37,471 bases of DNA from a virus. A program made the position numbers and the translations under genes. The stretch spans positions 1 through 37,471 of IMG/VR virus record IMGVR_UViG_3300023094_000007. One strand, 5' to 3'. Positions 3,209-37,471 of this stretch are shown in pieces; position 1 is the stretch's first letter, and every line of letters starts with the position of its first letter. The notes beneath the pieces were generated by a model, which saw only the letters and a program-made list of their open reading frames with translations, searched no databases and was not told the DNA's origin.

Positions 3209-3586
3209 ATGCCATTTAAAAAAGGTGAAACTCCAGAAGGCGCAAAACCATTTGTGGCTGGTCAGTCTGGTAATCCAGAAGGCAAGATTCCAGGCACTAA
3301 AAATCGTTCTACTATTGCTCGTAATGTTTTGGAAATGAGCGGATTACTTCCTCCTGATCGTATGGCGAAACTTAAAGAGAAGTTCCCTGACGTTACCGAT
3401 AAAATGTCAGTAGAAGAGATTATGACTATTGTAATGGCTGATAATGCTATCAATGGTGACGATAAAGCGTATAAAGCGGTTATGGATTCGGCATACGGTG
3501 CGCCTAAAGCAGAGATAGACCATACCAGCGGAGGCGAAAAGATTACCGGGTTCCGAATTATTGACGTGGATGGAACCGAAATTTAA
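3209..3586 (+). CDS. terS: Small terminase subunit-like protein (DUF5681-type)
   Basis: 125 residues. The N-terminal half has FVAGQSGNPEGKIPGTKNRST, the GQSGNPxG...KNRST pattern of the DUF5681 domain found in genes directly before large terminases. Residues about 70-110 (MSVEEIMTIVMADNAINGDDKAYKAVMDSAYG) look helical and may form the oligomer. It would recognise phage DNA and load the large subunit. It is the first gene after the late promoter and its end overlaps the large terminase start. Function is inferred from domain and position; this family is divergent from classical TerS. Confidence 0.75.
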   Translation: MPFKKGETPEGAKPFVAGQSGNPEGKIPGTKNRSTIARNVLEMSGLLPPDRMAKLKEKFPDVTDKMSVEEIMTIVMADNAINGDDKAYKAVMDSAYGAPKAEIDHTSGGEKITGFRIIDVDGTEI

Positions 3587-4886
3587 GACATTTGCCAACC
3601 AAAGGGATGCTCTAAGGAAACTAAGGGACAAAGAAACAAACGAGGTTCTTTACGGTGGTGGGGCCAGAGGCGGTAAGTCTTGGTTAGGGTGCGGATGGGT
3701 TCACATGGAAGCTATTAGTAAGCCAGGGTCTGCTTGGTTAGTTGCAAGGGAAGAACTTACAAAACTAAAAGATACAACCCTTTTAACTTTCTTTAAAACA
3801 GCAAAAGAGTTAGGGGTTAAAAACGAATACCACTATAACGCTCAAAGTTATACAGCAACATATCATAACGGCTCTGTTATATTCTTCAGGGAAATTAAAT
3901 ATTTACCATCTGACCCTGAGTTTGACCGTTTGGGATCTTACGATTTAACCGGGTGCTTCTTAGATGAGGCTCAGCAAATACATTCAAAAGCTATAAGCGT
4001 CTTAAAGGGGCGTTTTTCTGTTCTATCAGGGGAGGGGTGGGAAACTATACCAAAAGCGCTTTACACTTGTAACCCTGCAAAGAATTGGATTTATTCAGAC
4101 TTCGTAAAACCATTTAAAAACGAAACGTTAAAGCCTGGCAGAGCGTTCATTAAATCACTCGCTACACATAATCCTTTCGTTTCTCAGGATTACATAGACT
4201 TCTTGATGGGGGCCGATAAGGTGACTAAAGAACGTTTATTATATGGGAATTTCGAATACGATGATGACCCGTCAGCTCTAATAACAATAGACAAAATTAC
4301 AGACTGCTTCACCAACGCCTTCGTTACAGGTGGAGAATGGTTCATATCTGCAGATATAGCAAGATTTGGACGTGATAAAACTGTTATAGGTGTATGGAAC
4401 GGTATGAGGCTTGAACGGATAGTAACCATTGATAAAAACAAGGTTACAGAGGCTTCATTTATGATTAAAAGGTTATGTCAGGAATATCATGTACCGATTA
4501 GCAACGTAATAGTCGATGAAGACGGTGTAGGTGGTGGCGTAGTAGACGAATTGAGTTGTAAAGGATTTGTGAATAACTCAACACCGCTTGAAAATCCAGA
4601 AAATAGGGAGAAAGAAAACTATAATAACCTTAAATCTCAATGTTATTTTAAGTTAGCCGAAAAAATTAACAAAAATGAATTATATATTTGTGATGAGAAG
4701 TACCGGGATGAGATAGTCCAGGAGCTTGAGCAAGTAAAACAGTACAACATGGACAAAGACGGTAAAAAGCAGATATTGCCAAAAGACCGGGTTAAGGAAC
4801 TATTGGGGAGATCGCCCGATTTTTCCGATATGCTTATGATGCGGTGCTGGTTTGAATTTAATCCTTCATTCCAATGGACTTTCTAA
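3570..4886 (+). CDS. terL: Large terminase subunit (DNA packaging ATPase-nuclease)
   Basis: 438 residues from the ATG at 3570 (a TTG at 3561 would add three). Walker A is GGGARGGKS at residues 29-37. Walker B is in DLTGCFLDEAQQ, with the catalytic Glu after Asp. The C-terminal RNase H-like nuclease is marked by FISADIARFGRDK, VIVDEDGVGGG and a late PDFSDM acidic residue. It drives DNA into the prohead through the portal and cuts concatemers. The start overlaps the small subunit gene and portal follows after one base. Headful versus cos packaging cannot be decided from sequence alone. Confidence 0.95.
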   Translation: MEPKFKTFANQRDALRKLRDKETNEVLYGGGARGGKSWLGCGWVHMEAISKPGSAWLVAREELTKLKDTTLLTFFKTAKELGVKNEYHYNAQSYTATYHNGSVIFFREIKYLPSDPEFDRLGSYDLTGCFLDEAQQIHSKAISVLKGRFSVLSGEGWETIPKALYTCNPAKNWIYSDFVKPFKNETLKPGRAFIKSLATHNPFVSQDYIDFLMGADKVTKERLLYGNFEYDDDPSALITIDKITDCFTNAFVTGGEWFISADIARFGRDKTVIGVWNGMRLERIVTIDKNKVTEASFMIKRLCQEYHVPISNVIVDEDGVGGGVVDELSCKGFVNNSTPLENPENREKENYNNLKSQCYFKLAEKINKNELYICDEKYRDEIVQELEQVKQYNMDKDGKKQILPKDRVKELLGRSPDFSDMLMMRCWFEFNPSFQWTF

Positions 4887-6225: not shown

Positions 6226-7007
6226 ACCTAATCGAATACAGGCGTAATTTCTTAACCCTTCACGGGGCAAGCGAAAAGTATGCCCGTGGTGTTATTCGAG
6301 CCGGACTAAATAAACAGCGCGATGGTTTTATTCAAGCAATACGTAAGCATGGGGTTCAGTCTTTAACCGTAGCTGCCAGAGCAATCATATTAGACAATCC
6401 ACTAAGGCCATACTATAACCGTTTATATTCTCGCATTGGCGTAGAATACGCACGATTGACGTATAAAGATGTTCAGGATCAGTTAAACCTCGAAGTAAAA
6501 GCAGGGATTACATTTTATTCCGCTCAATGGCGCAGACAAATGATTGAGTTTATGTTGTCCGAGGGAGGCGTAAGGATTTCAGAGGTAGACGGGAATACGT
6601 TAAATAAAATTCAGCTGCTTCTTGCATCCGCTCAGGAACAGGGATTAACTCAGGACGAGACTTCACGCTATATGATTCTCGCATTAAAGAACGATATCAA
6701 TCCCAGTAACCCGTTCAATAAAGTAAGGGTGCAACGTATTGCAAGAACCGAAACGACTACTGCGGCTAATCGTGGGTTATTGATCGCTTCAGATAGTTTA
6801 ACGATAACTACGCTAAAGAAATGGGTTTACACCAAAGACAATAGAACCAGACCGGACCATGTTAGAGTAGGCACACGCGAACCGATCCCGTTAGATCAAC
6901 CGTATTTAGTTGGTGGCGAAGAAATGCAACAACCTGGCGATATCAATGCGAGTGCTAAACAGTGCGTTAATTGTCGTTGTTTTCAGAGGTTGGTTCCGGT
7001 GCAATAG
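6222..7007 (+). CDS. Minor head protein, SPP1 gp7 / Mu F-like
   Basis: 261 residues. The C-terminal region has RVQRIARTETTTAANRG, WVYTKDNRTRPDHV and NCRC, the hallmark order of the SPP1-gp7/Mu-F head morphogenesis domain (R-x-ARTE...W...D..R..H). Such proteins bind the portal and are packaged in a few copies. Translationally coupled to the portal (ATGA). The last 41 bases overlap, antisense, the 3' end of the reverse-strand gene at 6967-7227, so the reverse cassette sits directly against it. Confidence 0.88.
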   Translation: MNLIEYRRNFLTLHGASEKYARGVIRAGLNKQRDGFIQAIRKHGVQSLTVAARAIILDNPLRPYYNRLYSRIGVEYARLTYKDVQDQLNLEVKAGITFYSAQWRRQMIEFMLSEGGVRISEVDGNTLNKIQLLLASAQEQGLTQDETSRYMILALKNDINPSNPFNKVRVQRIARTETTTAANRGLLIASDSLTITTLKKWVYTKDNRTRPDHVRVGTREPIPLDQPYLVGGEEMQQPGDINASAKQCVNCRCFQRLVPVQ

Positions 7008-7227
7008 CTTCCAATACATTATCAAGATGCACAAAGCATTTTATATTTATATCAACTGATACCTGTTTAGGGTTCTCCACATTATCAATTAATGTCATAG
7101 ACGTTTGAAACGGGATCTCTACCCCTTTGTATGCCAGCATTAAATACCCGTTAGATTTCACTATTGAAAAATCATTTAGCCTAGGGTCATCGCCAATGCC
7201 TAGCATATTACTTCTTATTTCTTCCAT
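6967..7227 (-). CDS. Hypothetical protein of the reverse-strand cassette
   Basis: 86 residues, acidic, third gene of a three-gene minus-strand cassette within the head genes. Its ATG shares one base with the TAA of the GIY-YIG gene. The N-terminus (MEEIRSNMLGIGDD) and a beta-rich middle (YLMLAYKGVEIPFQTSMTLI) give no recognised family. Its last 41 bases are antisense to the minor head gene's end. Coupling to the GIY-YIG gene suggests a linked accessory role; no function assigned. Confidence 0.62.
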   Translation of the reverse strand: MEEIRSNMLGIGDDPRLNDFSIVKSNGYLMLAYKGVEIPFQTSMTLIDNVENPKQVSVDINIKCFVHLDNVLEAIAPEPTSENNDN

Positions 7228-7577
7228 TATATAAATTCCTTAGTGTAAAAATCTGAGTTAGTTTTGGCGTACTTCGGTATATAGTCGCTCGGCCTGCATC
7301 CTTTTTTTAAATGCTCGATAATATGATAAGATTCACGCCATGAAGCATTAAAGTGATCGCATTCCTCTATTACAGATATAACCGGGAGGAAACCCTTGCT
7401 TTTTAATTCTTCAATCCAATTGAACTTATCCGATTTTTCGGGAAAGTTTGCACAATGGTCTTTATACCTTCTCTGTGTATCTGCGGTAACGCCTATATAT
7501 CTAACATTACCTGTTTCAGGATCTGAAAGTGAATATACAAAACGCTTTTGTATTGGTAATCTTATCGCTTCTCCCAT
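7227..7577 (-). CDS. GIY-YIG nuclease
   Basis: 116 residues. FVYSLSDP...VRYIGVT near residues 13-30 matches the split GIY-YIG motif, TQRRYKDH supplies the conserved Arg and following His, and SWRESYHI holds the likely catalytic Glu. This is a one-domain GIY-YIG protein as in homing nucleases or small host-derived nucleases. It overlaps the upstream HTH gene by 16 bases and the downstream gene by one. A free-standing, opposite-strand position within the head operon suggests a mobile insertion. No DNA-binding NUMOD domain is visible. Confidence 0.82.
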   Translation of the reverse strand: MGEAIRLPIQKRFVYSLSDPETGNVRYIGVTADTQRRYKDHCANFPEKSDKFNWIEELKSKGFLPVISVIEECDHFNASWRESYHIIEHLKKGCRPSDYIPKYAKTNSDFYTKEFI

Positions 7578-7753
7578 GGACTTTTGTCTATTAAGTAATA
7601 CCCAAAATGGTTAAACAGCCTAGATAGGGTTTTAAATGACAATTCACCTTTGTTGAATTTCCCTTTGATGTTTGTAGCGTACTGAGGTGAAATGTAACCA
7701 GCGTACCATTTCTCCTTAGATGTTATTTCTTTAAATACTTCATGTTCTGTCAT
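7562..7753 (-). CDS. Small HTH protein, probable regulator of the reverse cassette
   Basis: 63 residues. KWYAGYISPQYATNIKGKFNKGELSFKTLSRLFNHFGYYL fits the small helix-turn-helix proteins of Bacteroidota that place two short helices around residues 20-50. It would repress or activate its own operon. The start ATG is only four bases after a -7-like box, so the mRNA may be leaderless. Two TATAAACAAA direct repeats overlap the promoter and are candidate operators. First gene of the minus-strand cassette 7753-6967. Confidence 0.68.
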   Translation of the reverse strand: MTEHEVFKEITSKEKWYAGYISPQYATNIKGKFNKGELSFKTLSRLFNHFGYYLIDKSPWEKR

Positions 7754-17582: not shown

Positions 17583-18155
17583 ATGGGAGTTGTAGACGAT
17601 TTATTAGCATACGTAGCAACGGTACTTGCAACCGTAACTACTAAAGACACTCCCGATAGTATAGATCCTGTCGATGTTGGCAATATAGGTACAGACCTTG
17701 CCGAAACGATAATGCCCTATATGGAACGCATTAACCAGGAGGATATAGATGATGGTACAGGTGTACCGGATGATTTGAATGGTCAGGATGGAGACAGGTA
17801 TTATCAGAACACCCCAAACGGTACAATTGAGTGGAGAAAAGAGGGCGCTTCATGGGTTTCTAAGGCAACTATAGGAGGAGGCGGTTTTATTCCTTTTGAC
17901 GGGATGGGAATTACAGGGGTTGTTGTGGATTTAGTCGCAGGCACAATAGAATTGCCGGATATTGAAAATGATTTTCCGGCTATACATGAAAATGGGATAA
18001 TAAGAGGGAATTTTGATCAACAATTTACAGGCGGCGCTTGGTATGCTGCAGACCCTCTGCCAGAGGTTACAAAAGATGTTGATGGCAAACTGTTGACGGC
18101 TCTTTTTACTCTTGGGAATATTAATTTGATTGGATTAAATGGAAGAATATGGTAA
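17583..18155 (+). CDS. Tail-associated protein, unknown
   Basis: 190 residues between the large tail protein and the fibre gene. The N-terminus has a hydrophobic helix (DDLLAYVATVLATVTT). The middle (DLNGQDGDRYYQNTPNGTIEWRKEGASWV) resembles the G-x-x-G-D-xY repeat used in fibres and Gly-rich phage tips. Likely a tail fibre or tip accessory. The end overlaps the next gene by seven bases. Confidence 0.65.
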   Translation: MGVVDDLLAYVATVLATVTTKDTPDSIDPVDVGNIGTDLAETIMPYMERINQEDIDDGTGVPDDLNGQDGDRYYQNTPNGTIEWRKEGASWVSKATIGGGGFIPFDGMGITGVVVDLVAGTIELPDIENDFPAIHENGIIRGNFDQQFTGGAWYAADPLPEVTKDVDGKLLTALFTLGNINLIGLNGRIW

Positions 18156-19804
18156 TTAAAAAACTATTTATCTGGCTGGCACTCCTACTGCCTTTTACCG
18201 CGAACGCTCAATGGGTTAACGGTGTGATACAGCGTAATGCATCAAGCACATTTATTCAGTATTTGCAGGGTGCTAATGCTGTTAGGCTGGCTACTTATGC
18301 GGATTTGCCTATAGTGACCCCCGTATCCTTCACAGCCTTCGGATCAACGCCAAACGCAAACGGGGCGAGTGTTACGGCGAATGTGATTACTTTGCAGCCG
18401 GCTGATGCGACGCATGACGGGGGCCTAACTGCATCAACACAACAAATAGGGGGTGATAAGGAGTTTTTAAATGCCATTAAATTTCTTGGTGTCGCAGGAG
18501 AGAGTTATATAAACATTCCTTTCCCTGTATCTGGTGGCATCCCTGTTATACCTATTGCACCTTTAAATAGCATAAATATAACAGGGGGCAATTCTGCCAT
18601 AGGGTTTAAAAATGACCAAAATATTTATGCGTCTATTTCAAGCTCTTCACTGACAGCAGATAGGGCGTATACTTTACCTGATGCTACAGGTACTCTTGCA
18701 TTACTATCAAGTCCAGCTTTCACCGGCACGCCAACCGCTCCAACAGCTACAGCAGGAACAAATACTACGCAATTAGCAACAACGGCGTTTGTGACTACGG
18801 CTGTAGGTGCTGTAACATCCCCCATGACACGCACAGGTACAATTGTAAGCCCTACAACTGCCAATGATAATATAAGAGTAACTACAAATAATGGGTTACC
18901 TGCAATAGAGGGCAATGGGTCTGGTAGTTCGGGGGGCGTATCCGGTAATTCGTCTGGTGGCTTTGCAGGAGTGAGCGGAGAGAATACAGGGACGGGTTCT
19001 GCCGGTGGATTTAGAAACACTAATGCTACAAACCCAACTGTTTCGGCGCAGAACTTAAACGCATCTGGCCCGATTTATAGAGGGATAAACTCGGCATCTT
19101 CTACCGTATTTACAGTCGCAAATACGGGTTCGGCATCCAGCACACCTCAAGGTACTTTTTACGGGACAGCTACAGGGTCAATGACAAGCGCACAGCTATC
19201 GACATCATTAACAGATGAAACCGGCTCTGGATCGGCTGTTTTCGCCACCTCCCCAACCCTTGTAACGCCAAATATAGGAGTGGCAACGGGAACGAGTTTA
19301 AGCCTAAGTTCCACGTTAACAGCTACCGGAATAACTACAGTTGGCGGGTACGGATCAGGCGCTCAGGTTTCTTTAAGTATAAGAGGTAATAGTAACGCTC
19401 AGGTTGGTTCTTTTGATCATGACGGACAGATTAAATTTCCATTTTTAAATAGTGGTACGGGGACTGGTCTAGTAGTAGACGCTAGTGGGTTTATTATAAA
19501 AAATACCTCATCTATTCGTTACAAGAAAAATATCAAGCCTATTGATATAGGCTTAGATTTTATATTGTCATTAAAACCGGTTAAGTATGATACAAAAAAT
19601 GACAATACCGCACAGGTTGGATTTATAGCTGAGGATTTTCCAGACGAAAGATTAGTTGGTTTTGCATACGATAGTAATAAAAAACTAATTAGAGAAAGCA
19701 TTAACTATTCTCAAATCACTGCACCATTAGTAAAGGCAATGCAGGAGCAACAGGCAATAATTGAACAACTAAAGGCAAGGATTGAAGCATTAGAAACTAA
19801 ATAA
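18149..19804 (+). CDS. Tail fibre with S74 intramolecular chaperone, signal-like N-terminus
   Basis: 551 residues. The C-terminal ~100 residues (SSIRYKKNIKPIDIGLDFILSLKPVKYD...VGFIAEDF...YSQITAPLVKAMQEQQAIIEQLKARIEAL) are an S74 endosialidase-type chaperone that trimerises and may self-cleave at the Ser before RYKKNI. The middle is Gly/Ser/Thr-rich with the FTGTPTAPTATAGTNTTQLATTAFV fibre repeat. Unusual: residues 1-21 (MVIKKLFIWLALLLPFTANA) look like a Sec signal peptide with an ANA-Q cleavage site. Confidence 0.87.
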   Translation: MVIKKLFIWLALLLPFTANAQWVNGVIQRNASSTFIQYLQGANAVRLATYADLPIVTPVSFTAFGSTPNANGASVTANVITLQPADATHDGGLTASTQQIGGDKEFLNAIKFLGVAGESYINIPFPVSGGIPVIPIAPLNSINITGGNSAIGFKNDQNIYASISSSSLTADRAYTLPDATGTLALLSSPAFTGTPTAPTATAGTNTTQLATTAFVTTAVGAVTSPMTRTGTIVSPTTANDNIRVTTNNGLPAIEGNGSGSSGGVSGNSSGGFAGVSGENTGTGSAGGFRNTNATNPTVSAQNLNASGPIYRGINSASSTVFTVANTGSASSTPQGTFYGTATGSMTSAQLSTSLTDETGSGSAVFATSPTLVTPNIGVATGTSLSLSSTLTATGITTVGGYGSGAQVSLSIRGNSNAQVGSFDHDGQIKFPFLNSGTGTGLVVDASGFIIKNTSSIRYKKNIKPIDIGLDFILSLKPVKYDTKNDNTAQVGFIAEDFPDERLVGFAYDSNKKLIRESINYSQITAPLVKAMQEQQAIIEQLKARIEALETK

Positions 19805-19811
19805 ATAAACC

Positions 19812-20042
19812 ATGCTAAGTAAACAACAAGAATTTCAAAAGCAAGTTATTTCCGAGGTGAAACCAAAGGGTAAAACTTTTCGGTTCATCCTTAAAAAAGT
19901 CCTTCCGTGGCTATTTGAGAATATGCCGAAGATTATTGCAATCTGGAAAACCTTAAAGGATAAACCAGATCAACCGCCTGTTATTATGGGTGGCGATGAT
20001 GAAAAAGAGCCTGATCCGGGAACGCATCCACCAGCACCTTGA
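19812..20042 (+). CDS. Small protein, basic helix and Pro-rich tail
   Basis: 76 residues. Basic amphipathic N-terminal half (FRFILKKVLPWLFENMPKIIAIW), acidic Pro-rich end (DEKEPDPGTHPPAP). It could associate with membrane. It lies between fibre and lysis-region membrane genes. Its TGA overlaps the TTG start of the next gene (TTGA). No family recognised. Confidence 0.65.
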   Translation: MLSKQQEFQKQVISEVKPKGKTFRFILKKVLPWLFENMPKIIAIWKTLKDKPDQPPVIMGGDDEKEPDPGTHPPAP

Positions 20043-20401
20043 GATATATACTAGCCACGATTATTTATCTGACCAACGCCGGGTTATACTTATGGTATAG
20101 TCCGGCGTTAAAACTTTTATACTATAATGAGTTTGCTTTATGGTATTTCGGGACAGAGAGCATATTTATGCCTGTATTCATGTGGCTTGCATACAAGGCG
20201 GTTCATTGGTATCAGAAGTGCTTGATAGGAATTATTGCCATATACATTATTGCTAGGGGCATTTTGTACATGCTTAATGATTCTTTAATATGGGTTGAAC
20301 AAGGTAGATGGAGGATGCTTGTTCTCTCTGTTATTACTTTATTGTTCGTTATCCTATTCATAAAAAACGGGCGCAAATACGGCTTTATAGATAGAGATTA
20401 A
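20039..20401 (+). CDS. Membrane protein with about four segments (TTG start)
   Basis: 120 residues with hydrophobic segments around 4-22, 38-55, 61-78 and 90-108. The start TTG overlaps the upstream stop as TTGA, the counterpart of the ATGA overlaps used elsewhere here. Internal ATGs would remove the first segment. Its place before the endolysin suggests a lysis or envelope role (holin-like is possible), but no holin family is recognised. Confidence 0.65.
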   Translation: MRYILATIIYLTNAGLYLWYSPALKLLYYNEFALWYFGTESIFMPVFMWLAYKAVHWYQKCLIGIIAIYIIARGILYMLNDSLIWVEQGRWRMLVLSVITLLFVILFIKNGRKYGFIDRD

Positions 20402-20438
20402 CGAATTTGATATATACAATATGGGTGTTTGTCACTTG

Positions 20439-20458
20439 TTTACTTATTAATTAGTAAA
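20439..20458. repeat. 20-bp near-perfect inverted repeat upstream of membrane genes
   Basis: TTTACTTATT against AATTAGTAAA, nine of ten pairs matching, in the 84-base gap between two membrane protein genes. A TTACTTTG box (20465-20472), close to TAnnTTTG, follows just downstream, 13 bases before the next start. The inverted repeat could be an operator. No -33 element with proper spacing is visible, so promoter activity is uncertain. Confidence 0.4.
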
Positions 20459-20485
20459 TTTTCGTTACTTTGATAGAAAAAGACA

Positions 20486-20986
20486 ATGACAATTATACTT
20501 TGGATCATGAATCACTATCTTATGTTAGCCTCTTGGTTTTTCGCATTTACCTATATGGAGTGTTTCATAAAGTTGTCTATGGCAGGATGGTCTGAGGCTT
20601 TCCGAAACACTTTATACATGACCATTATCCCCATTGTTGGCATCACTATTGACCCTGAATTAACCAGAACATATTTAATCCTATGCATACCGATGCTTTT
20701 AGGAATTGTTGCTAGATTTGGGTCACTCTATAAAAAGAAACTTTTAAATAAAAGGAATGTGATCACGCAGCTATTAGTTACCGTTCCGTTCTGCGTTTTT
20801 GCATACTGGGGATGGGTTTATTCAGGATCTAAATTCCCGATCGAATTAATTATCGCAGGAGTTAGCTATTTTAGCATTACAATTGTTAGTATTGAGGCAG
20901 AGACAGGAGAGTTAACCGTAAGGGCGTGGTTATATAAACTCACGGGCGGTCTAAATGACATCCTAAAACCTAAAAATAATGACTGA
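20486..20986 (+). CDS. Polytopic membrane protein of the lysis region
   Basis: 166 residues, with hydrophobic segments near 3-24, 40-58, 62-78, 92-112 and 118-135. The C-terminal ~30 residues are soluble and charged (KLTGGLNDILKPKNND). It is coupled to the next membrane gene by an 8-base overlap and precedes the endolysin by 400 bases. Holin or holin-regulator activity is plausible from position only. Confidence 0.68.
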   Translation: MTIILWIMNHYLMLASWFFAFTYMECFIKLSMAGWSEAFRNTLYMTIIPIVGITIDPELTRTYLILCIPMLLGIVARFGSLYKKKLLNKRNVITQLLVTVPFCVFAYWGWVYSGSKFPIELIIAGVSYFSITIVSIEAETGELTVRAWLYKLTGGLNDILKPKNND

Positions 20987-21356
20987 AACTACTATATCAT
21001 ACTTGCTATACGTTGGGTCTATGGTGCTTATGCTTGGGGTGCAGTTTTTTATATCCGCAATGATCTCAGAAAGCAAGCATACATTAACCGGGTCTGTTAA
21101 AGATTGGCTGTTAAAAAATGATGGATCGGGGTTTAAATGGCTATGGCAGCATGAAAGGTATTTAGTATATTATGTATTCAGGGCCGCTATTGTCGGCATC
21201 GCATTAGCTAATGTTGGTCAATTCATCAAAGAGGATATATTCACGCGAAATCCATTTATCCAATACGCACAGCCTACCTTTTGGAGTTGCATTCTGTACA
21301 TTATTTACGACTATAAAAGGCTATGGGATTTATTTGAATCAAAAACGTTACCTTAG
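20979..21356 (+). CDS. Membrane protein preceding the endolysin
   Basis: 125 residues. N-terminal segment SYLLYVGSMVLMLGVQFFISAMI and a second near 70-88 (VYYVFRAAIVGIALANVGQFI). Possibly a third near 105. It ends four bases before the M15 endolysin, a typical holin position, but the sequence does not match a holin family I know. Confidence 0.68.
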   Translation: MTETTISYLLYVGSMVLMLGVQFFISAMISESKHTLTGSVKDWLLKNDGSGFKWLWQHERYLVYYVFRAAIVGIALANVGQFIKEDIFTRNPFIQYAQPTFWSCILYIIYDYKRLWDLFESKTLP

Positions 21357-21359
21357 ATT

Positions 21360-21830
21360 ATGCTTACAACCGCACAACTAAACGCTAAATATGGCATCCC
21401 GAACCCAACCGGGAATGGGTATTTGACAACTATTGAACTACCGTTCCCTATGATAGTTGCATGGGATCGAAAGTCAACTGTAAAAAAAATACAATGTCAT
21501 AAGTTAATAGCGGATAGACTAAAGAAAGCATTGTCCGATATTCTTTGCCATTACGGTATCGAAGAAATAAAACGACTTCAAATAAACGTCTATGGCGGCT
21601 GCTTTAACTATCGATTGATGCGAGGTAGCACCACTACATTATCAAAGCATTCATGGGGCACAGCTATCGATCTGGACCCGGATAGAAACTTGCTACATGA
21701 AACGTCAAAGACTGCCAGGTTTGCAAGGCCTGAATATAAGGCAATGATTGATATATTTTACCTGAATGGATTTATCAGCTTAGGTAGAGAGAAAAATATG
21801 GATTTCATGCATTTCGAAATCGCATCTTAA
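21360..21830 (+). CDS. M15 peptidase endolysin (peptidoglycan endopeptidase)
   Basis: 156 residues. [12 protein letters not shown] holds zinc ligands His97 and Asp104 in the HxxGxAxD motif, and His151 in MDFMHFE is the third ligand. [13 protein letters not shown] supplies the conserved Arg. M15 enzymes of this size cleave peptide bonds in the stem or cross-bridge. No signal peptide, so a holin is needed. The last 24 bases, covering His151 and the stop, are copied at the end of the next gene. Confidence 0.9.
21807..21830 (+). repeat. Endolysin 3' end, left copy of a direct repeat flanking the GIY-YIG gene
   Basis: This 24-base stretch, from the Met codon before His151 to the stop, matches 22381-22404 at 21 of 24 positions. 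Both encode M-H-F-E-I-A-S/T and end in TTAA. The two copies bracket the GIY-YIG gene exactly. Confidence 0.8.
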
Positions 21831-21835
21831 TTTCG

Positions 21836-21843
21836 TATCTTTA
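21836..21843 (+). promoter_or_regulatory. -7-like box just before the GIY-YIG start
   Basis: TATCTTTA matches TAnnTTTG except the last base. A TTCG lies 19 bases upstream (21813-21816) as a weak -33. The start ATG is three bases later, so the product would be leaderless. Such an own promoter is common for homing nuclease genes in phage late operons. Confidence 0.4.
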
Positions 21844-21846
21844 GGT

Positions 21847-22404
21847 ATGGGTGTTTACTATATCTATTTTCATAAAAAAGCCGATAATGGCGATGTTTTC
21901 TACGTAGGGAAAGGTAAAGATCGAAGATGTTTTGTGAAGCGGTGTAGAAGTTTTCACTGGAACAACATCGTAAATAAACATGGTTATACCATTGAAGTTA
22001 TAGAGCAAGGTTTATCTGAATCCGAGGCAATTGAAAGGGAGATATTTTGGATAAATAAACTTGGTAGGATTGATTTAAAGACCGGATGCTTAGTCAACTT
22101 TACAAACGGTGGAGAGGGTTCTAGTGGCAGACCAATGAGCGATAGAACTAAATCAATAATTTCACAAACCAATAAAGTAAGACCACCATCTCCAAACCAA
22201 AAGAAATTTATTGCAAATCTCTTTAAGGGTAAAACCGGCAAAGACCATAACCGTAGTAAGTCGGTAAGATGTACCGAGACTGGAATCATATACGGATCTC
22301 AATCGGAAGCGCAAAGAGAATTAAAATTAGGCGGTGGCTCGGTGTCATGGTCAATTAAACATAGCAAGCCTATTTATGGGATGCATTTTGAAATAGCAAC
22401 TTAA
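21847..22404 (+). CDS. GIY-YIG homing endonuclease with NUMOD-type C-terminus
   Basis: 185 residues. YYIYFHKKADNGDVFYVGKGKDRR is the GIY-YIG core (residues 4-28), HKHGYTIEV-type strand and SEAIEREIFWI the catalytic Glu helix. NFTNGGEGSSGRPMSDRTK leads to DNA-binding linkers, and GIIYGSQSEAQRELKLGGGSVSWSIK is a NUMOD1-type helix-turn-helix. The last seven residues (MHFEIAT) mimic the endolysin end. Free-standing homing gene, inserted directly after its probable target. Confidence 0.9.
   Translation: MGVYYIYFHKKADNGDVFYVGKGKDRRCFVKRCRSFHWNNIVNKHGYTIEVIEQGLSESEAIEREIFWINKLGRIDLKTGCLVNFTNGGEGSSGRPMSDRTKSIISQTNKVRPPSPNQKKFIANLFKGKTGKDHNRSKSVRCTETGIIYGSQSEAQRELKLGGGSVSWSIKHSKPIYGMHFEIAT
22381..22404 (+). 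repeat. Right copy of the endolysin 3'-end repeat
   Basis: Matches 21807-21830 at 21 of 24 bases, with the same reading frame and stop. It forms the end of the GIY-YIG gene. See the left copy. Confidence 0.8.
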
Positions 22405-22410
22405 AATATT

Positions 22411-22707
22411 ATGGAAAAATTAGAACTAAAAGGCGGCATTGATGTGGCTGTTAAAGCCTCGTCAAATCAATTTTCTTTAAGCAACCGTGATTTATGGTTA
22501 GGTTTATTAATGGCGGCTCTGGCCCCGGTAGCTTTGCAGCTTTACGAATTGCTTATGGCTTTCCTAGATTATGAGCCGGTTACATTCGATTGGCGCGCAT
22601 TAGCTAAAACAGGTATCGCATCGGGTGCCGCCTATTTGGGTAAAAACTTCCTGGATAAAGGAAAGATCGTTATTGAAAAGAATGCGTTAAGGGAAGCTAA
22701 GAAATGA
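22411..22707 (+). CDS. Holin-like small membrane protein
   Basis: 98 residues. One strong segment near 30-50 (LWLGLLMAALAPVALQLYELLMAFL) and a weaker Gly/Ala-rich one near 67-80 (TGIASGAAYLGKNF), ending in a charged tail. Two-segment layout, size and position after the endolysin resemble class II holins. TGA overlaps the next ATG (ATGA). Confidence 0.68.
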   Translation: MEKLELKGGIDVAVKASSNQFSLSNRDLWLGLLMAALAPVALQLYELLMAFLDYEPVTFDWRALAKTGIASGAAYLGKNFLDKGKIVIEKNALREAKK

Positions 22708-22811
22708 CAGAATTTCAATCAGCTATGCTTTGGCTATCAACCATGTTGATAGTCTTTGTGTTTTCGACTATTTACTTCGAGAAGATTAAATCATTCCTCG
22801 GGATAAAGTGA
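22704..22811 (+). CDS. 35-residue single-membrane-segment protein
   Basis: ATG 22704 overlapping the upstream TGA, stop TGA 22809-22811. The product is mostly one transmembrane helix (AMLWLSTMLIVFVFSTIYF) with a short positive tail (EKIKSFLGIK), N-out or N-in undetermined. Last gene of the late operon; its 3' end overlaps, antisense, the last gene of the minus operon. Could be a lysis accessory such as an antiholin or spanin-like peptide, by position only. Confidence 0.62.
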   Translation: MTEFQSAMLWLSTMLIVFVFSTIYFEKIKSFLGIK

Positions 22812-22901
22812 TTTTAATAACTCCCATCCGGCATATAAGCAAAGTATAGCCAAGCAAAGTATCCATATTGCTTGTTCTACGTATTCAGGGTTTTGTTCCA
22901 T
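22791..22901 (-). CDS. 36-residue membrane peptide, last gene of minus operon
   Basis: ATG at 22901 shares a base with the upstream stop (TAATG). 36 residues with one hydrophobic segment (AIWILCLAILCLYAGWELL) and acidic ends. Coupled to the operon; its last 21 bases overlap antisense the end of the late operon. No obvious strong terminator separates the two convergent units; a weak AAATCA/TGATTT stem at 22788-22814 is possible. Confidence 0.6.
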   Translation of the reverse strand: MEQNPEYVEQAIWILCLAILCLYAGWELLKSLYPEE

Positions 22902-23023
22902 TATGATATAATGATTAAGTATATAGTAAATCTATACCCTTGCTTAATTTGCTCAGGCGTTAAGTTCTTATAAAGTTTCCGGCAATGGTGCAAAAATTTG
23001 CCATCCGTTTTAGAGCGTTTCAT
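22901..23023 (-). CDS. 40-residue basic protein of minus operon
   Basis: 40 residues from ATG 23023 to TAA, starting four bases after the upstream stop. Basic N-terminus (MKRSKTDGKFLHHCRKLYK), then a hydrophobic end (RFTIYLIIIS). Could be a short C-tail-anchored peptide. Support is tight spacing inside the operon. Confidence 0.58.
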   Translation of the reverse strand: MKRSKTDGKFLHHCRKLYKNLTPEQIKQGYRFTIYLIIIS

Positions 23024-23027
23024 AATC

Positions 23028-23195
23028 TCAACTCGTTAACCACGCACTCGCAACCAGCAAAAGGCAAATCAATACCGTTACTTTCTCGTGTGGTGGTGCA
23101 TTATTAAATTTAACAAAAAGTTTGAATAAAAACTTACACACGTAGATTAAAACTAGGCATGTAAGTAGAACGGTTATGAGGGCGAAGTAGGGCAT
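23028..23195 (-). CDS. 55-residue two-segment membrane protein of minus operon
   Basis: ATG 23195 shares a base with the upstream TAA (TAATG); TGA at 23030-23028. Two hydrophobic segments (ALITVLLTCLVLIYVCKFLF, VLICLLLVASAWL) separated by a short loop with APPHEK, an alpha-hairpin layout like small holins or phage toxins. Size and coupling support a real gene. Confidence 0.65.
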   Translation of the reverse strand: MPYFALITVLLTCLVLIYVCKFLFKLFVKFNNAPPHEKVTVLICLLLVASAWLTS

Positions 23196-23395
23196 TACCA
23201 TTTAGGTTTGCTTTGAACGGTACTGTCAATTGTGTACTTAACCTGATCCATAGCCAATTCGTAAGATTTGATTATATTTTCAAGTCTGTCAATCTCATTA
23301 AATACATCCTTTGCGTATTGCTTGGGATCATCCCCACTCAGTAGAGCGTCCCGCAAAACCACTTTCTGGTCAAGTGTTAGAAATTCCGTTTTCAC
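23195..23395 (-). CDS. Small coiled-coil-like protein of minus operon
   Basis: 66 residues, start overlapping the upstream gene by four bases (ATGA). TLDQKVVLRDALLSGDDPKQYAKDVFNEIDRLENIIKSYELAMDQV suggests two amphipathic helices, the second with heptad spacing. No signal peptide or membrane segment, so a cytosolic partner among membrane genes. Unknown family. Confidence 0.66.
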   Translation of the reverse strand: MKTEFLTLDQKVVLRDALLSGDDPKQYAKDVFNEIDRLENIIKSYELAMDQVKYTIDSTVQSKPKW

Positions 23396-23841
23396 GACAA
23401 CAACCCTCCCTGTTTCATTAGATCGTATTCGGTTTTCATTTCCGTCATAGCTTGCAAGGATTGATATTTAGGCATGCCCGTTACGTTCTGGTATAATTCA
23501 CCAGCCATAACTTCCCAGTATGGTATACGTACCGATTTAGGCATATTTCGCAATGTTAAAATTGCTTGCTTGATAGCTATGTTTGTAATTACTGATTCAT
23601 TTGAAAGTCCAAGTGTTTTTGTTAAAACCCCAGGTAAATGCTTCTTAACGAAATCAAGAAACTTCTGATCCAACTTAAGCACACGAGCGATATTAATAAT
23701 TATCTGCGTGGTGTCCGATTCAACAATTTTCTTTATCCACTCAATTAAGCGGATTATCTTCCTTCTGTCTGCCGTCCGGTCTTTCTTAAACAGAAGTCCG
23801 GTAATAAATGCGATGATGGGGGTTAGGTTTGGTAGTTTCAT
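23392..23841 (-). CDS. 149-residue protein with N-terminal hydrophobic helix, minus operon
   Basis: N-terminal segment LTPIIAFITGLLF then basic KKDRTADRRK, consistent with a single membrane anchor and cytosolic remainder of amphipathic helices (IIRLIEWIKKIVESDTTQIIINIARVLKLDQKFLDFVKKHLP). Coupled on both sides by four-base overlaps. No family recognised. It may be the structural core of the operon's envelope complex, but this is inference. Confidence 0.68.
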   Translation of the reverse strand: MKLPNLTPIIAFITGLLFKKDRTADRRKIIRLIEWIKKIVESDTTQIIINIARVLKLDQKFLDFVKKHLPGVLTKTLGLSNESVITNIAIKQAILTLRNMPKSVRIPYWEVMAGELYQNVTGMPKYQSLQAMTEMKTEYDLMKQGGLLS

Positions 23842-24227
23842 TTGACGATAATTCCACCTCCTGTAGCGGGCATAATATTATTATTATAATTATTCCAAAT
23901 TCTAAATGATCCGATACCTGAATAATCTTGACCACGCACAACATTTACAGATTTAAAATCCCAATATTGCTTTTTATCGTTCCACTCAGCTTTGTATTTT
24001 TCAGTATACTTTGTACTGTCTGAAAGCGTATAAACCTTTTGAATAGTTCTTACAGCAGTATTGTTCTCAGTCGCATAAACAGTGTCAATAACTTTCTGAT
24101 TAAACAACCCTGACATAATGATTGGGCTGTAAGTCTGATTTAATTTTCCTGCCTTAAACTCTAAGGGCTTGTTCTGAGCCATTGCGGTGCTACACAGCAA
24201 ACAGGCGATTACGATTATGTATTTCAT
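23838..24227 (-). CDS. Secreted/periplasmic protein with signal peptide, minus operon
   Basis: 129 residues. MKYIIVIACLLCSTAMA-Q is a Sec signal peptide with AMA cleavage site. The mature part is polar and beta-rich (FKAGKLNQTYSPIIMSGL, YTLSDSTKYTEKYKAEWNDKKQYWDFKSV, GIGSFRIWNNYNN). No enzymatic motif. Export of a phage protein to the periplasm or surface implies envelope modification, for example blocking a receptor. Confidence 0.72.
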   Translation of the reverse strand: MKYIIVIACLLCSTAMAQNKPLEFKAGKLNQTYSPIIMSGLFNQKVIDTVYATENNTAVRTIQKVYTLSDSTKYTEKYKAEWNDKKQYWDFKSVNVVRGQDYSGIGSFRIWNNYNNNIMPATGGGIIVK

Positions 24228-24231
24228 ATTA

Positions 24232-24675
24232 TTAATTTAATTTCCAGAATTTAATTCCTGCTGAAACTTTCACAACAAAATTAATCCCCTCATCCATATC
24301 CTTTTTCTTATCGTATTGACCGAGTACCGCTCCGGCTCTAATACGTAGGTTGTGGAAGCGTATTCCTCCGAGCAAGGCAATTGTACTGTTTCTGCCAAAT
24401 CCTCGCTTGACAGACATATTTTGCACTTCTACCATCCATAAGGGCGTTGCTTGGAGTATGGCGTTTATTGCAAATCCGTTTTTAAAGGCTTGGACTGTTA
24501 CCATGTCATATTTCCAATTCTCTATGCCCGCGCCTACGCTCGTCTGCTGTACTCCATTAGACATTTGGTGTTCGATGGATATGGCGGGGGCTATTTGGGC
24601 GTGGCAAACAAACGGTAGTATGGTCATGCCAATGACTACTAATAATACCATTAAGCCGAATATTTTTATTTTCAT
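24232..24675 (-). CDS. Secreted beta-rich protein, possible small outer-membrane barrel, minus operon
   Basis: 147 residues. Signal peptide residues 1-27 (IFGLMVLLVVIGMTILPFVCHA-Q). The mature part has alternating hydrophobic residues in repeated strands (TSVGAGIENW, YDMVTVQAF, FAINAILQA, WMVEVQNMSV, IALLGGIRFHNLRIRAGAVLG, FVVKVSAGIKFW) and ends in aromatic-rich KFWKLN, as in small outer-membrane barrels. Inferred surface protein. Neighbours are coupled. Confidence 0.72.
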   Translation of the reverse strand: MKIKIFGLMVLLVVIGMTILPFVCHAQIAPAISIEHQMSNGVQQTSVGAGIENWKYDMVTVQAFKNGFAINAILQATPLWMVEVQNMSVKRGFGRNSTIALLGGIRFHNLRIRAGAVLGQYDKKKDMDEGINFVVKVSAGIKFWKLN

Positions 24676-24875
24676 GGCTTGTCTAATATTTCTATCTCTT
24701 CACGCTTAATAACTTCAACAATCCATCCTATCCACATACAGACGAACAGGACTGCCAAAACTCCGATCCAGAAACTGGGTATTTCAAATACTTTTATTGC
24801 CAATATTACCGTCAATGTTGCATGGAGTGGCGTTTTTGTAGGTAGGTTTTTGTTAGATATTACTTTCTTTTTCAT
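24672..24875 (-). CDS. Small membrane protein, minus operon
   Basis: 67 residues. A basic N-terminus (MKKKVISNKNLPTK), one or two hydrophobic stretches (ATLTVILAIKVFEIPSFWIGVLAVLFVCMWIGWIV) and an acidic tail. Overlaps both neighbours by four bases. Position between lipoprotein and barrel-like genes suggests the inner-membrane partner of the group. Confidence 0.68.
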   Translation of the reverse strand: MKKKVISNKNLPTKTPLHATLTVILAIKVFEIPSFWIGVLAVLFVCMWIGWIVEVIKREEIEILDKP

Positions 24876-25090
24876 TTCTTATGGTTTTTACAGTTTCCTT
24901 TGTGCGATCCCCACGCCACATCTCCACCTCCGAATTTTACGTATTCACAGCCTTCAAATTCAATTATTCGAACTTGTGACCCGTTTATGTATTCGCCTGT
25001 ATATTTAGTCTTTACAGTATCTGGTTCACACCCGCTCAACATCAGAACGGCAAGGATGTTTAGGGAGAGGTTACGCATGTTAATAATCAT
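24872..25090 (-). CDS. Small lipoprotein, minus operon
   Basis: 72 residues from 25090, or 68 from the ATG at 25078. N-terminus LSLNILAVLMLSGC is a lipoprotein signal with lipobox LSGC, giving a mature protein of about 50 residues with three further Cys/Gly-rich turns (FEGCEYVKFGGGDVAWGSHKGNC). Phage-encoded lipoproteins are classic superinfection-exclusion factors (for example T5 Llp), but this one is not recognisably related. First exported product of the operon. Confidence 0.72.
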   Translation of the reverse strand: MIINMRNLSLNILAVLMLSGCEPDTVKTKYTGEYINGSQVRIIEFEGCEYVKFGGGDVAWGSHKGNCKNHKK

Positions 25091-25277
25091 CAGATTCTCC
25101 TAAATCTAAATATTCCTGATCAGTTAACCATTTAGGTTCTAAGTGGAATATGTTTTGGTTAAGCATGTTATTATACTCGCTCATGTGGCTTTCTATTATA
25201 TCCATACAGGATTTCAGATCAGATGTTACGTTCATTTCGTAATCATCTGTTAATTCGTAGTATAGTTTCTTCTCCAT
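25080..25277 (-). CDS. Small acidic protein, paralogue of the 1221-1427 product
   Basis: 65 residues sharing MEKKLYYEL and the closing TDQEYLDLGESDDY with the early-module gene at 1221-1427. Polar, acidic, with a helical middle (DLKSCMDIIESHMSEYNNML). Second gene of the minus operon, 30 bases after the RHH-like gene. The shared paralogue links the two modules' evolution. Function unknown. Confidence 0.72.
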   Translation of the reverse strand: MEKKLYYELTDDYEMNVTSDLKSCMDIIESHMSEYNNMLNQNIFHLEPKWLTDQEYLDLGESDDY

Positions 25278-25307
25278 ATCAATTTTAAATGCCGCTAACT
25301 TACGGGG

Positions 25308-25466
25308 TTACGATTGTTTTTGATTAATAACAATAGGCTTCTGGGCCAGCTTAGTTAAATATTCCTCTATATAAGGCTTTAACTTTTTGCCTTTATGAGC
25401 GGCTTGTATATTAAGCTTATTCAGATCTTCCGGATCAAGGCTTATAATCTTATCTTGTTTCTTCAT
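25308..25466 (-). CDS. Small ribbon-helix-helix-like regulator heading the minus operon
   Basis: 52 residues. KKQDKIISLDPEDLNKLNIQAAHKGKKLKPYIEEYLTKLA fits the Bacteroidota short RHH proteins: a beta strand (DKIISLD), helix, then helix with the K.L..Y...L. pattern. It would bind DNA as a dimer. The start is three bases after a consensus -7 box, so the mRNA may be leaderless, as for phage cI genes. The adjacent divergent region holds two copies of a 13-bp motif, likely its operators. Confidence 0.72.
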   Translation of the reverse strand: MKKQDKIISLDPEDLNKLNIQAAHKGKKLKPYIEEYLTKLAQKPIVINQKQS

Positions 25467-25469
25467 ATC

Positions 25470-25501
25470 CAAATGTATAAAGTATATAATTAATATGCAA
25501 C
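25470..25501 (-). promoter_or_regulatory. Minus-operon promoter (consensus -7)
   Basis: On the minus strand: GTTG (25501-25498), 20 bases, TACATTTG (25477-25470), a full match to TAnnTTTG. It directs transcription into the RHH-like gene whose ATG is at 25466. The first copy of the 13-bp motif (25476-25488) overlaps the end of the -7 and its spacer. Confidence 0.72.
25476..25488. promoter_or_regulatory. 13-bp operator-like motif, copy 1
   Basis: TATAAAGTATATA, identical to 25586-25598. It lies in the minus promoter between -7 and -33 elements. A shorter form (ATAAAGTA) appears upstream of 35925. Likely binding site for the RHH-like protein; inference. Confidence 0.55.
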
Positions 25502-25577: not shown

Positions 25578-25609
25578 CTTGCGTATATAAAGTATATACC
25601 TTACTATTG
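25578..25609 (+). promoter_or_regulatory. Early plus-strand promoter
   Basis: CTTG (25578-25581), 20 bases, TACTATTG (25602-25609), one mismatch to TAnnTTTG. It drives the early module from 25658 on. Copy 2 of the 13-bp motif lies in its spacer, and GTATAT/ATATAC (25583-25588 and 25594-25599) forms an inverted repeat around it. The rest of the 191-base interval is A/T-rich with no gene. Confidence 0.6.
25586..25598. promoter_or_regulatory. 13-bp operator-like motif, copy 2
   Basis: TATAAAGTATATA, exact copy of 25476-25488, 110 bases apart, in the spacer of the early promoter. See copy 1. Confidence 0.55.
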
Positions 25610-33101: not shown

Positions 33102-33272
33102 GTGGAAAAACTAAAAGAAAAGATAAAGGAATCAGGATTAAAGCAAAATTTTATTGCTGATAAGTGTGGCGTAGGTCATGCCCATTTTTCTATGATGCTT
33201 AACGGTACGGCAACCATGCCAGAATCAGTAAGAAACAAAATAAATGAGTTACTTGAAAAAGTTTCCATTTGA
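33102..33272 (+). CDS. Small Cro/XRE-like HTH protein (GTG start)
   Basis: 56 residues; GTG directly follows an in-frame TGA, so no earlier start exists. LKEKIKESGLKQNFIADKCGVGHAHFSMMLNGTATMPESVRNKINELLEK has the XRE helix-turn-helix (KQNFIADKCGVGHAHFSMML) and third helix. Likely a repressor of the neighbouring replication genes or the early promoter. It is below 60 codons and starts with GTG, so easily missed. Confidence 0.8.
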   Translation: MEKLKEKIKESGLKQNFIADKCGVGHAHFSMMLNGTATMPESVRNKINELLEKVSI

Positions 33273-36633: not shown

Positions 36634-37470
36634 ATGAAAACCGTAACATCAGTATCAGGAGGCAGAACTAGTTCTTACATGGCACTAAATTATCCGACTG
36701 ATTATAATATATTTTCGCTTGTAAGGATTGAAGACCCATTATGTGCACCCTCTGATAAAAGTATTATACGTTACGTAGAAGATAAAATCGAAAAACCATT
36801 TATAGCAACTGCGGAAAGTGATAAGACACTTTATGTTCTAAGACAATTAGAGCAGGATTTAGGCAAAGAAATAATTTGGGTTACAGGGAAAACTTTTGAG
36901 CAGTTAATCAGGGATAGCAACGCAAATGGTAATTATCTTCCTAATAGAAGAAAGCGATTTTGCACTCAATTAATGAAACTTGATCCTATATTTTGGTATT
37001 GCTACCTAAACTTAATGGAGAGTGAAGATGATTTTATCTCGATGAACATCGGGTATAGGTCAGATGAAAAAACCCGAAAAGCAACTGACGAATACGACTT
37101 CATAAAAAGCACAAAAAACTTTGGGTTAAGGTATCAGAATCATGAAATAATAGAGTGGCGGGAAAGCCATTTCCCACTAAGGAAAGATAATATAGACCAA
37201 TTCACTATTAGACACTACTTTACACATCTATCAAGTTATGATTTTCCTGTGTATTCTAATTGTGCAGGATGCTTTAATAAAACAGAAAAAGAGTTACAAG
37301 AGCAGTTCGTTTACGAGCCCAATAAGATGGCGTGGTTTAAACGAATGGAAGAGATAACCGGCAGCAGGTGGAACATATCCGCTACTTTATCTCAAATAGA
37401 ACAGATGGAGTTTACGGAAGAGCAAGTATCCGAAATGTCACGATATGAAACATGCAATTGTACAGATTAA
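36634..37470 (+). CDS. PAPS-reductase-like PP-loop protein
   Basis: 278 residues. SGGRTSSYMA at residues 8-17 is the PP-loop (SGGxxS) of adenylating enzymes. RRKRFCTQLMKLDPI and CAGCFNKTEKELQ with the Cys-rich end TCNCTD recall the PAPS reductase/DndC group, where Cys bind a 4Fe-4S cluster or relay sulfur. Phage genes of this type occur widely; DNA modification or sulfur-related tRNA/cofactor roles are possible. It crosses the circle junction: the end is repeated at 1-126. Confidence 0.82.
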   Translation: MKTVTSVSGGRTSSYMALNYPTDYNIFSLVRIEDPLCAPSDKSIIRYVEDKIEKPFIATAESDKTLYVLRQLEQDLGKEIIWVTGKTFEQLIRDSNANGNYLPNRRKRFCTQLMKLDPIFWYCYLNLMESEDDFISMNIGYRSDEKTRKATDEYDFIKSTKNFGLRYQNHEIIEWRESHFPLRKDNIDQFTIRHYFTHLSSYDFPVYSNCAGCFNKTEKELQEQFVYEPNKMAWFKRMEEITGSRWNISATLSQIEQMEFTEEQVSEMSRYETCNCTD

Positions 37471-37471
37471 A
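37345..37471. repeat. Right copy of the 127-base terminal repeat
   Basis: Identical to 1-127; see the left copy. One copy should be removed to represent the circle. Confidence 0.93.

What the first reader, a model, noticed from the sequence alone, without database searches (positions are those of the whole stretch)
22791..25466. Reverse-strand operon of exported and membrane microproteins under an RHH-like regulator
Eleven minus-strand genes run with 1-11 base overlaps or gaps up to 30 bases. After the regulator and a small acidic protein they encode a lipoprotein (LSGC), a small membrane protein, a signal-peptide barrel-like protein, a second signal-peptide protein, a membrane-anchored protein, a cytosolic coiled coil, and 55-, 40- and 36-residue mostly membrane peptides. 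No integrase is present. The promoter is consensus and opposes the early promoter. A set like this could alter the envelope and exclude superinfecting phages, or act in lysis. I know no named system with this composition.
Basis: partly seen in the sequence, partly recalled or inferred. Interest (0 to 1): 0.78.

Follow-up and report, generated by a model that had tools for sequence, protein, structure and literature searches.

The report
Phage's reverse-strand envelope-protein cargo operon
A virus of Bacteroidota bacteria carries a compact, probably self-regulated set of eleven tiny genes, about half of them for exported or membrane proteins, sitting where related dormant viruses keep their immunity genes; it most likely remodels the infected cell's envelope, probably to keep other viruses out, but this has not been tested.

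Summary
The operon is real. Eleven minus-strand ORFs tile 2,638 of 2,676 bases (best of 500 shuffles: 778), with coupled junctions, behind a Bacteroidota sigma-A promoter (TTG-N20-TACATTTG). The window is a complete circular phage genome with no tyrosine integrase or resolvase found. A 13-bp repeat sits in the spacers of both this promoter and the opposing early promoter, a candidate shared operator for the first gene. Two twin phages share the distal half nearly base for base, while the proximal genes are swapped. In one twin the lipoprotein's signal peptide is kept and its mature domain replaced. In related phages the same slot, between lysis and early genes, holds a reverse-strand operon; in integrase-bearing relatives this begins with a CI-like repressor followed by lipoprotein, secreted and membrane genes. 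The lipoprotein belongs to a widespread phage family (phrog_19356) with two conserved cysteines; none of 45 tested carriers had an integrase above cut-off. I judge it an envelope-directed cargo module, most likely superinfection exclusion or receptor blocking in the manner of T5 Llp. It is not a demonstrated Cor/Llp member and not a lysis cassette. The regulator's RHH identity, m7's and m10's membrane character, and all functions remain untested.

The parts
25470..25500 (-). Promoter of the operon: TTG-N20-TACATTTG; predicted start of transcription at or next to the ATG of m1 (leaderless mRNA, inferred)
   Evidence: -7 box consensus TAnnTTTG at -12 to -5 from PMC9723704
25476..25488 (.). 13-bp repeat TATAAAGTATATA, copy 1, in the spacer of the operon promoter: candidate operator
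   Evidence: a repeat this long in 8 of 2,000 shuffles of the intergenic region
25586..25598 (.). 13-bp repeat, copy 2, in the spacer of the early plus-strand promoter
25579..25609 (+). Opposing early promoter TTG-N20-TACTATTG
25308..25466 (-). m1: 52-aa putative small regulator, RHH-like by pattern only
   Evidence: no profile hit
25268..25308 (-). 41-b leader of m2 kept (97.6%) in the twin although m2 itself is replaced
25080..25277 (-). m2: 65-aa acidic protein, no relatives found
24872..25078 (-). m3: lipoprotein (lipobox LSGC) of family phrog_19356; conserved C44, Y46, H59, K60, G61, C63; start most likely the ATG at 25078
24672..24875 (-). m4: 67-aa protein with one or two transmembrane segments
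24232..24675 (-). m5: 147-aa signal-peptide protein, beta-rich C-terminus (barrel not established)
   Evidence: (pLDDT 43)
23838..24227 (-). m6: 129-aa signal-peptide protein
23392..23841 (-). m7: 149-aa protein, helical by appearance; weak phrog_4504 match (6.6e-4)
23195..23395 (-). m8: 66-aa cytosolic protein, weak coiled-coil profile match
23028..23195 (-). m9: 55-aa (57 with the upstream ATG) protein, two transmembrane segments
22901..23023 (-). m10: 40-aa basic peptide, not clearly membrane
22791..22901 (-). m11: 36-aa single-TM peptide; its end overlaps the plus-strand 35-aa ORF by 21 b
22541..24468 (.). Block with two differences to the twin phage G001; edges inside the 98-aa gene and inside m5 (recently exchanged module)
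19812..22811 (+). Neighbouring plus-strand lysis cassette (small membrane proteins, M15 endolysin 21360-21830, 98-aa and 35-aa membrane proteins); context, not part of the operon

Best explanation
This is a self-regulated cargo operon of an integrase-less Bacteroidota siphophage, probably expressed early. It occupies the slot that integrase-bearing relatives use for their repressor/immunity module. Shown: a tight operon with its own host-type promoter; half its products carry export or membrane signals; its genes are exchanged as modules; the slot in integrase-bearing relatives holds a repressor followed by envelope proteins. Inferred: m1 represses its own promoter and the early promoter through the shared 13-bp repeat; host RNA polymerase transcribes the operon soon after infection; the products go to the inner membrane (m4, m9, m11), periplasm (m6), outer membrane (m5) and, by lipidation, to a membrane face (m3). 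The most likely purpose is to change the envelope so that other phages cannot adsorb or inject, and/or so that progeny are not trapped on receptors of lysed cells, with m3 acting like T5 Llp (jamming an outer-membrane receptor).
For: ORF chain and coupling. Export enrichment p = 6e-4. Promoters and shared repeat. Slot comparison: Mucilaginibacter prophage L058 = putative repressor, lipoprotein, integrase; Rufibacter L064 = S24-type repressor then five secreted/TM/lipoproteins; L065, L017 (repressor, then an anchored GDSL hydrolase) and L242 (HTH_3 repressor, lipoprotein, TM protein, integrase) likewise. A relative without a detected integrase, L244, has an 11-gene reverse operon beginning with a 63-aa RHH-pattern gene and ending with an m3-family lipoprotein. 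m3 family: 53 aligned members, lipobox plus two conserved Cys; 0 of 45 carrier phages with an integrase over cut-off, no convincing hit in 301 bacterial genomes. Fast domain swapping behind a kept signal peptide, as expected of surface-exposed arms-race genes. Precedent: Llp of lytic T5 is a 61-residue lipoprotein that blocks FhuA (PMC9586334).
Against: No gene is homologous to a protein of proven exclusion function: Cor (phrog_1119) matches m3 at 9e-4 over 43 residues but only 3 of 53 family members. The m3 model has no match in the PDB (best E 0.4), so no fold link to Llp. Related reverse operons in L002, L003, L010, L011 and L244 hold mostly cytosolic proteins, so envelope targeting is not a constant of the slot. 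m1 has no profile support as a DNA-binding protein. The repeat was found after looking. Timing of expression is not known.
Confidence: 0.5

Rival explanations
1. The operon is still part of a lysogeny system: the phage persists as a plasmid-like prophage, m1 is the immunity repressor and the envelope proteins are lysogenic-conversion cargo.
For: Same slot and same layout (regulator first, then envelope proteins) as integrase-bearing relatives; shared repeat in both divergent promoters looks like a switch; an HTH protein at 33102-33272 has weak repressor-like PHROG matches.
Against: No integrase or resolvase found, and no partition gene was recognised when reading the ORF list (no partition model was searched); the m3 family is absent from tested integrase carriers; m1 at 52 aa is far from CI-like repressors.
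Confidence: 0.17
2. The operon encodes miscellaneous host-takeover or counter-defence proteins; the envelope proteins are a mixed set with no common purpose.
For: Related reverse operons are dominated by varied small cytosolic proteins; genes are swapped individually; no PADLOC or other functional match.
Against: Membrane/export enrichment here and several such genes in L064, L242, L245 and L248.
Confidence: 0.23
3. Accessory lysis functions: m3 with m4 (or m5/m6) act as spanins or regulate holin action.
For: Lipoprotein next to a small membrane protein; operon abuts the lysis cassette and its end overlaps it by 21 b; no spanin was recognised on the plus strand of the window, whereas some relatives have a lipobox + C-terminal TM protein there (L011, L010).
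Against: Opposite strand and own host-type promoter; m3 mature part is about 50 residues with a small beta fold, without a coiled coil or proline-rich span; m4 has almost no periplasmic domain; m3 relatives in other phages are not beside recognised lysis genes.
Confidence: 0.08
4. Several of the short distal ORFs (m8-m11) are not expressed genes.
For: Very short; the two sequences available are almost identical over them, so selection on the coding frame cannot be tested; the codon-based caller omits m9-m11.
Against: GTGA and TAATG junctions in register between m7 and m11; chain length far beyond shuffles.
Confidence: 0.1

Closest known systems
T5 Llp / T1-phi80-N15 Cor superinfection-exclusion lipoproteins
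   Same: m3 is a similarly tiny phage lipoprotein with two conserved cysteines in the mature part; Llp and Cor share an intramolecular disulphide (PMC9586334); carriers tested lack integrases, as T5 is lytic
   Different: No family-wide profile match (3 of 53), different conserved motif (CEY ... HKGNCKN), no PDB fold match; in the window embedded in an 11-gene operon; receptor unknown
PHROG phrog_19356 (unknown function)
   Same: 50 of 53 members of the m3 family match it
   Different: The PHROG has no function; the link to reverse-strand operons and integrase-less phages is from this study
Lysogenic-conversion/exclusion cargo of temperate phages (e.g. P22 sieA, lambdoid morons)
   Same: Envelope proteins from a separate promoter, next to the regulatory module; rapid exchange between phages
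   Different: Tight 11-gene operon in a phage without detected integrase; small regulator in place of CI
Reverse-strand regulator operons of Sak4-bearing Bacteroidota phages (L244, L248, L242, L058, L064)
   Same: Same slot between lysis cassette and early genes, divergent from the early operon, regulator-like gene first
   Different: Cargo almost entirely different; only the m3 family is shared, with L244 (and as a remnant in G001)
Flavobacterium phage 11b (closest cultured phage by TerL, 49.6%)
   Same: Similar genome size and structural gene order
   Different: All annotated genes on one strand; no reverse operon

Membership tests
Cor superinfection-exclusion lipoprotein (phrog_1119) | Small phage lipoprotein with signal peptide and lipobox | tested here: met
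   m3 lipobox LSGC; near-invariant lipobox Cys in 53 members
Cor superinfection-exclusion lipoprotein (phrog_1119) | Profile match over the mature domain, shared by the family | tested here: not met
   m3 E 9e-4 over residues 1-43 only; 3 of 53 members match
T5 Llp | Fold resembling solved FhuA-bound Llp | tested here: inconclusive
   AF2 model pLDDT 81, pTM 0.52; no PDB match below E 0.4; AF2 is itself inaccurate for free Llp (PMC9586334)
Cor / Llp | Blocks a TonB-dependent outer-membrane receptor and excludes superinfection | not testable with these tools
   needs expression and adsorption assays
phrog_19356 lipoprotein family | Profile match | tested here: met
   m3 2.5e-5; 50 of 53 members, best 3e-11
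Ribbon-helix-helix regulator (m1) | Match to an RHH profile (PF01402 or similar) | tested here: not met
   no family at E <= 1 in Pfam or NCBIfam; PDB hits only above E 0.8 and not RHH proteins
Ribbon-helix-helix regulator (m1) | Binds operator repeats at its own promoter | not testable with these tools
   candidate 13-bp repeats found
Temperate-phage lysogeny module | Integrase or resolvase in the genome | tested here: not met
   (PF00589 alone missed the integrase of L242, so two integrase models were used)
Temperate-phage lysogeny module | Position between lysis and early genes, divergent from the early operon, regulator first | tested here: met
   the regulator assignment of m1 is by pattern only
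Spanin / lysis cassette | Lipoprotein plus inner-membrane protein with periplasm-spanning domains, co-directional with the endolysin | tested here: not met
   opposite strand; m3 mature part is short and beta-rich, m4 is short
Known anti-phage defence system | PADLOC model match | tested here: not met
   none for ten of the eleven proteins at E <= 0.1 (m10 not submitted)

The most novel reading that the evidence does not exclude
A multi-protein envelope-shielding system of virulent Bacteroidota phages: a receptor-jamming lipoprotein of a large uncharacterised phage family, a secreted outer-membrane-type protein, a periplasmic protein and inner-membrane microproteins, expressed together from a host promoter under a small regulator that also controls the early promoter, with mature domains exchanged behind conserved signal peptides to change specificity.
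Probability: 0.2. Interest if true: 0.72.

Novelty: new variant of a known kind. Interest (0 to 1): 0.45.

Why it matters
Superinfection exclusion is known mainly from Enterobacteria phages. Here is a testable candidate in Bacteroidota phages, and a lipoprotein family with more than 150 loci in IMG/VR whose tested carriers lack integrases, which suggests that lytic phages widely encode Llp-like envelope blockers. The slot comparison also gives a way to read the reverse-strand genes of these phages: the place of the immunity module, with or without the integrase.

Tried and rejected
Homologues of m5, m6 and m7 in viral contigs: only the twin G001. tblastn of m3, m5, m6, m7 in cultured phages: none. 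Structure of m5 from one sequence: pLDDT 43, not used. m3 model against the PDB: no credible match; against BFVD only same-type uncharacterised lipoproteins. m7 as a homologue of the similarly placed 154-aa gene of L003 or the 152-aa gene of L058: no. phrog_4504 in 301 Sphingobacteriales genomes: none, and no positive control rang. A tRNA-like stretch in the twin's operon: not a tRNA and no Rfam match. Genome-wide count of TTG-N17-21-TAnnTTTG sites is no more than chance (4 versus 3.5 expected), so the promoter rests on position. The conserved m2 leader as a probe for further operons: only the twin. A codon-difference test for coding was not informative because the shared block is nearly identical.
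Full report
WHAT IS THERE. The window is a complete phage genome: its first and last 127 bases are identical. Plus-strand genes run from terminase (TerL 3561-4886) through head, tail and fibre to a lysis cassette (19812-22811, with an M15-type endolysin, PHROG 'endolysin' match 4e-45), and again from 25658 through the replication genes. Between them eleven minus-strand ORFs (m1-m11) fill 22791-25466. They cover 2,638 of 2,676 bases as one chain, against at most 778 in 500 shuffles. Most junctions are the ATGA, GTGA and TAATG kinds of coupled operons. By a simple hydropathy and signal rule 6 of 11 products are exported or membrane proteins, against 3 of 49 other plus-strand genes outside the lysis block (p = 6e-4).

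REGULATION. Upstream lies TTG-N20-TACATTTG, matching the Bacteroidota -7 box TAnnTTTG at -12 to -5 (PMC9723704, PMC7366714). With that spacing transcription would start at or next to the ATG of m1, so the mRNA is probably leaderless (inference). The divergent early genes have TTG-N20-TACTATTG at 25579-25609. The exact 13-mer TATAAAGTATATA occurs only twice in the genome, once inside each spacer; a repeat of that length arises in 8 of 2,000 shuffles of the intergenic region. The repeat was noticed after the fact, so I treat it as a lead. m1 looks like a ribbon-helix-helix protein to the eye but matches no profile or PDB chain.

THE TWIN. IMGVR_UViG_3300022919_000002 (G001, 40,370 b, same kind of 127-b end repeat) has the same layout. 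From 22541 to 24468 the two differ at two positions, while other long matching parts are 74-93% identical: a recently exchanged module with edges inside the 98-aa membrane-protein gene and inside m5. m1, m2 and m4 are replaced in the twin by unrelated genes. m3 is the telling case: its signal-peptide DNA (25030-25078, 94%) and 42 b of its end are kept, but a different mature domain lies between them, and the old end (HKGNCKNHKK) is left out of frame. Short conserved islands also flank the swapped m2 (its leader) and the m5 signal-peptide junction.

THE SLOT. I anchored on the nearby ATPase gene (Sak4-type) and on the endolysin, and compared the place between lysis and early genes. In loci with integrases it holds a reverse operon beginning with a repressor: L058 Mucilaginibacter (putative HTH protein, lipoprotein, integrase), L064 Rufibacter (S24-type repressor, then TM/secreted 121 aa, secreted 196, TM 121, lipoprotein 117, TM 66), L065 (HTH_3 repressor, TM 71, secreted 169), L017 (repressor, 101 aa, anchored GDSL hydrolase), L242 (HTH_3 repressor, lipoprotein 120, TM 97). 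Others without a detected integrase carry reverse operons of about 7-17 small genes; in L244 the first gene is a 63-aa RHH-pattern protein (no Pfam match) and the last an m3-family lipoprotein. Envelope content varies from almost none to nearly all, so the window is at the high end rather than typical.

THE LIPOPROTEIN. m3 belongs to a phage family with over 150 loci in IMG/VR. In 53 aligned members C44, Y46, H59, K60, G61 and C63 are invariant and the lipobox Cys nearly so; 50 of 53 match phrog_19356, of unknown function, and only 3 match Cor. None of 45 carrier records has an integrase above cut-off with PF00589 or PF13102 (one sub-threshold hit with internal stops). A search of 301 Sphingobacteriales genomes gave only weak matches, mostly over the signal peptide, though that search scored only 18 candidates per genome; the profile did ring in all eight virus records used as control. 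The model (pLDDT 81) is a signal helix followed by four short strands, without a PDB match.

INTERPRETATION. Envelope-directed cargo in the immunity slot of an integrase-less phage, with fast exchange of mature domains behind kept signal peptides, points to contact with a fast-changing partner at the cell surface. The nearest precedent is Llp of the lytic phage T5, which binds FhuA from the periplasm and closes the receptor (PMC9586334). I therefore favour receptor blocking / superinfection exclusion, at about even odds, over a plasmid-prophage module, a mixed counter-defence set, or lysis. It works like that class; membership in Cor/Llp is not claimed, since the profile test failed.

LIMITS. 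Signal and TM calls are from a simple rule, not SignalP or DeepTMHMM. m5-m11 are known from two near-identical copies, so neither selection nor structure could be tested. Gene calls in relatives are from a home-made caller. The PF00589 search alone missed the divergent integrase of L242, so 'no integrase' means none by the models used.

Noticed in passing
18149-19804 (+): The S74-type tail-fibre protein begins with a clear Sec-signal-peptide-like sequence (MVIKKLFIWLALLLPFTANAQ|W); its homologue in G001 (L037, from about 14467) and a 660-aa protein of L010 (1051-3033) also begin with one, which is odd for virion proteins.
   Followed up: partly
6967-7753 (-): A three-gene minus-strand island interrupts the plus-strand head genes; its middle gene is a weak GIY-YIG homing-endonuclease match (TIGR01453, E 0.019).
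   Followed up: no
21847-22404 (+): A GIY-YIG/group I intron endonuclease-like gene (TIGR01453, 3.7e-6) sits between the endolysin and the 98-aa membrane protein; the twin G001 has an amidase-like endolysin and no such gene there.
   Followed up: partly
1-127 and 37345-37471: 127-b direct terminal repeat: the record is a complete circular genome of 37,344 b; the twin also has a 127-b repeat.
   Followed up: yes
L138-L232: More than 150 IMG/VR loci encode the m3 lipoprotein family, including contigs above 200 kb, sometimes with two copies in one genome.
   Followed up: partly
L036:470-500 (-) of G001: A terminator-like hairpin with a T run (GCCGTGAATAGTGCGGCATTTTTT) separates the first ORF of the twin's reverse operon from the rest; the window has no counterpart.
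   Followed up: no
L011:1555-2202, L010:3924-4517: Plus-strand lysis cassettes of relatives carry unimolecular-spanin-like proteins (lipobox plus C-terminal TM); none was recognised in the window.
   Followed up: no
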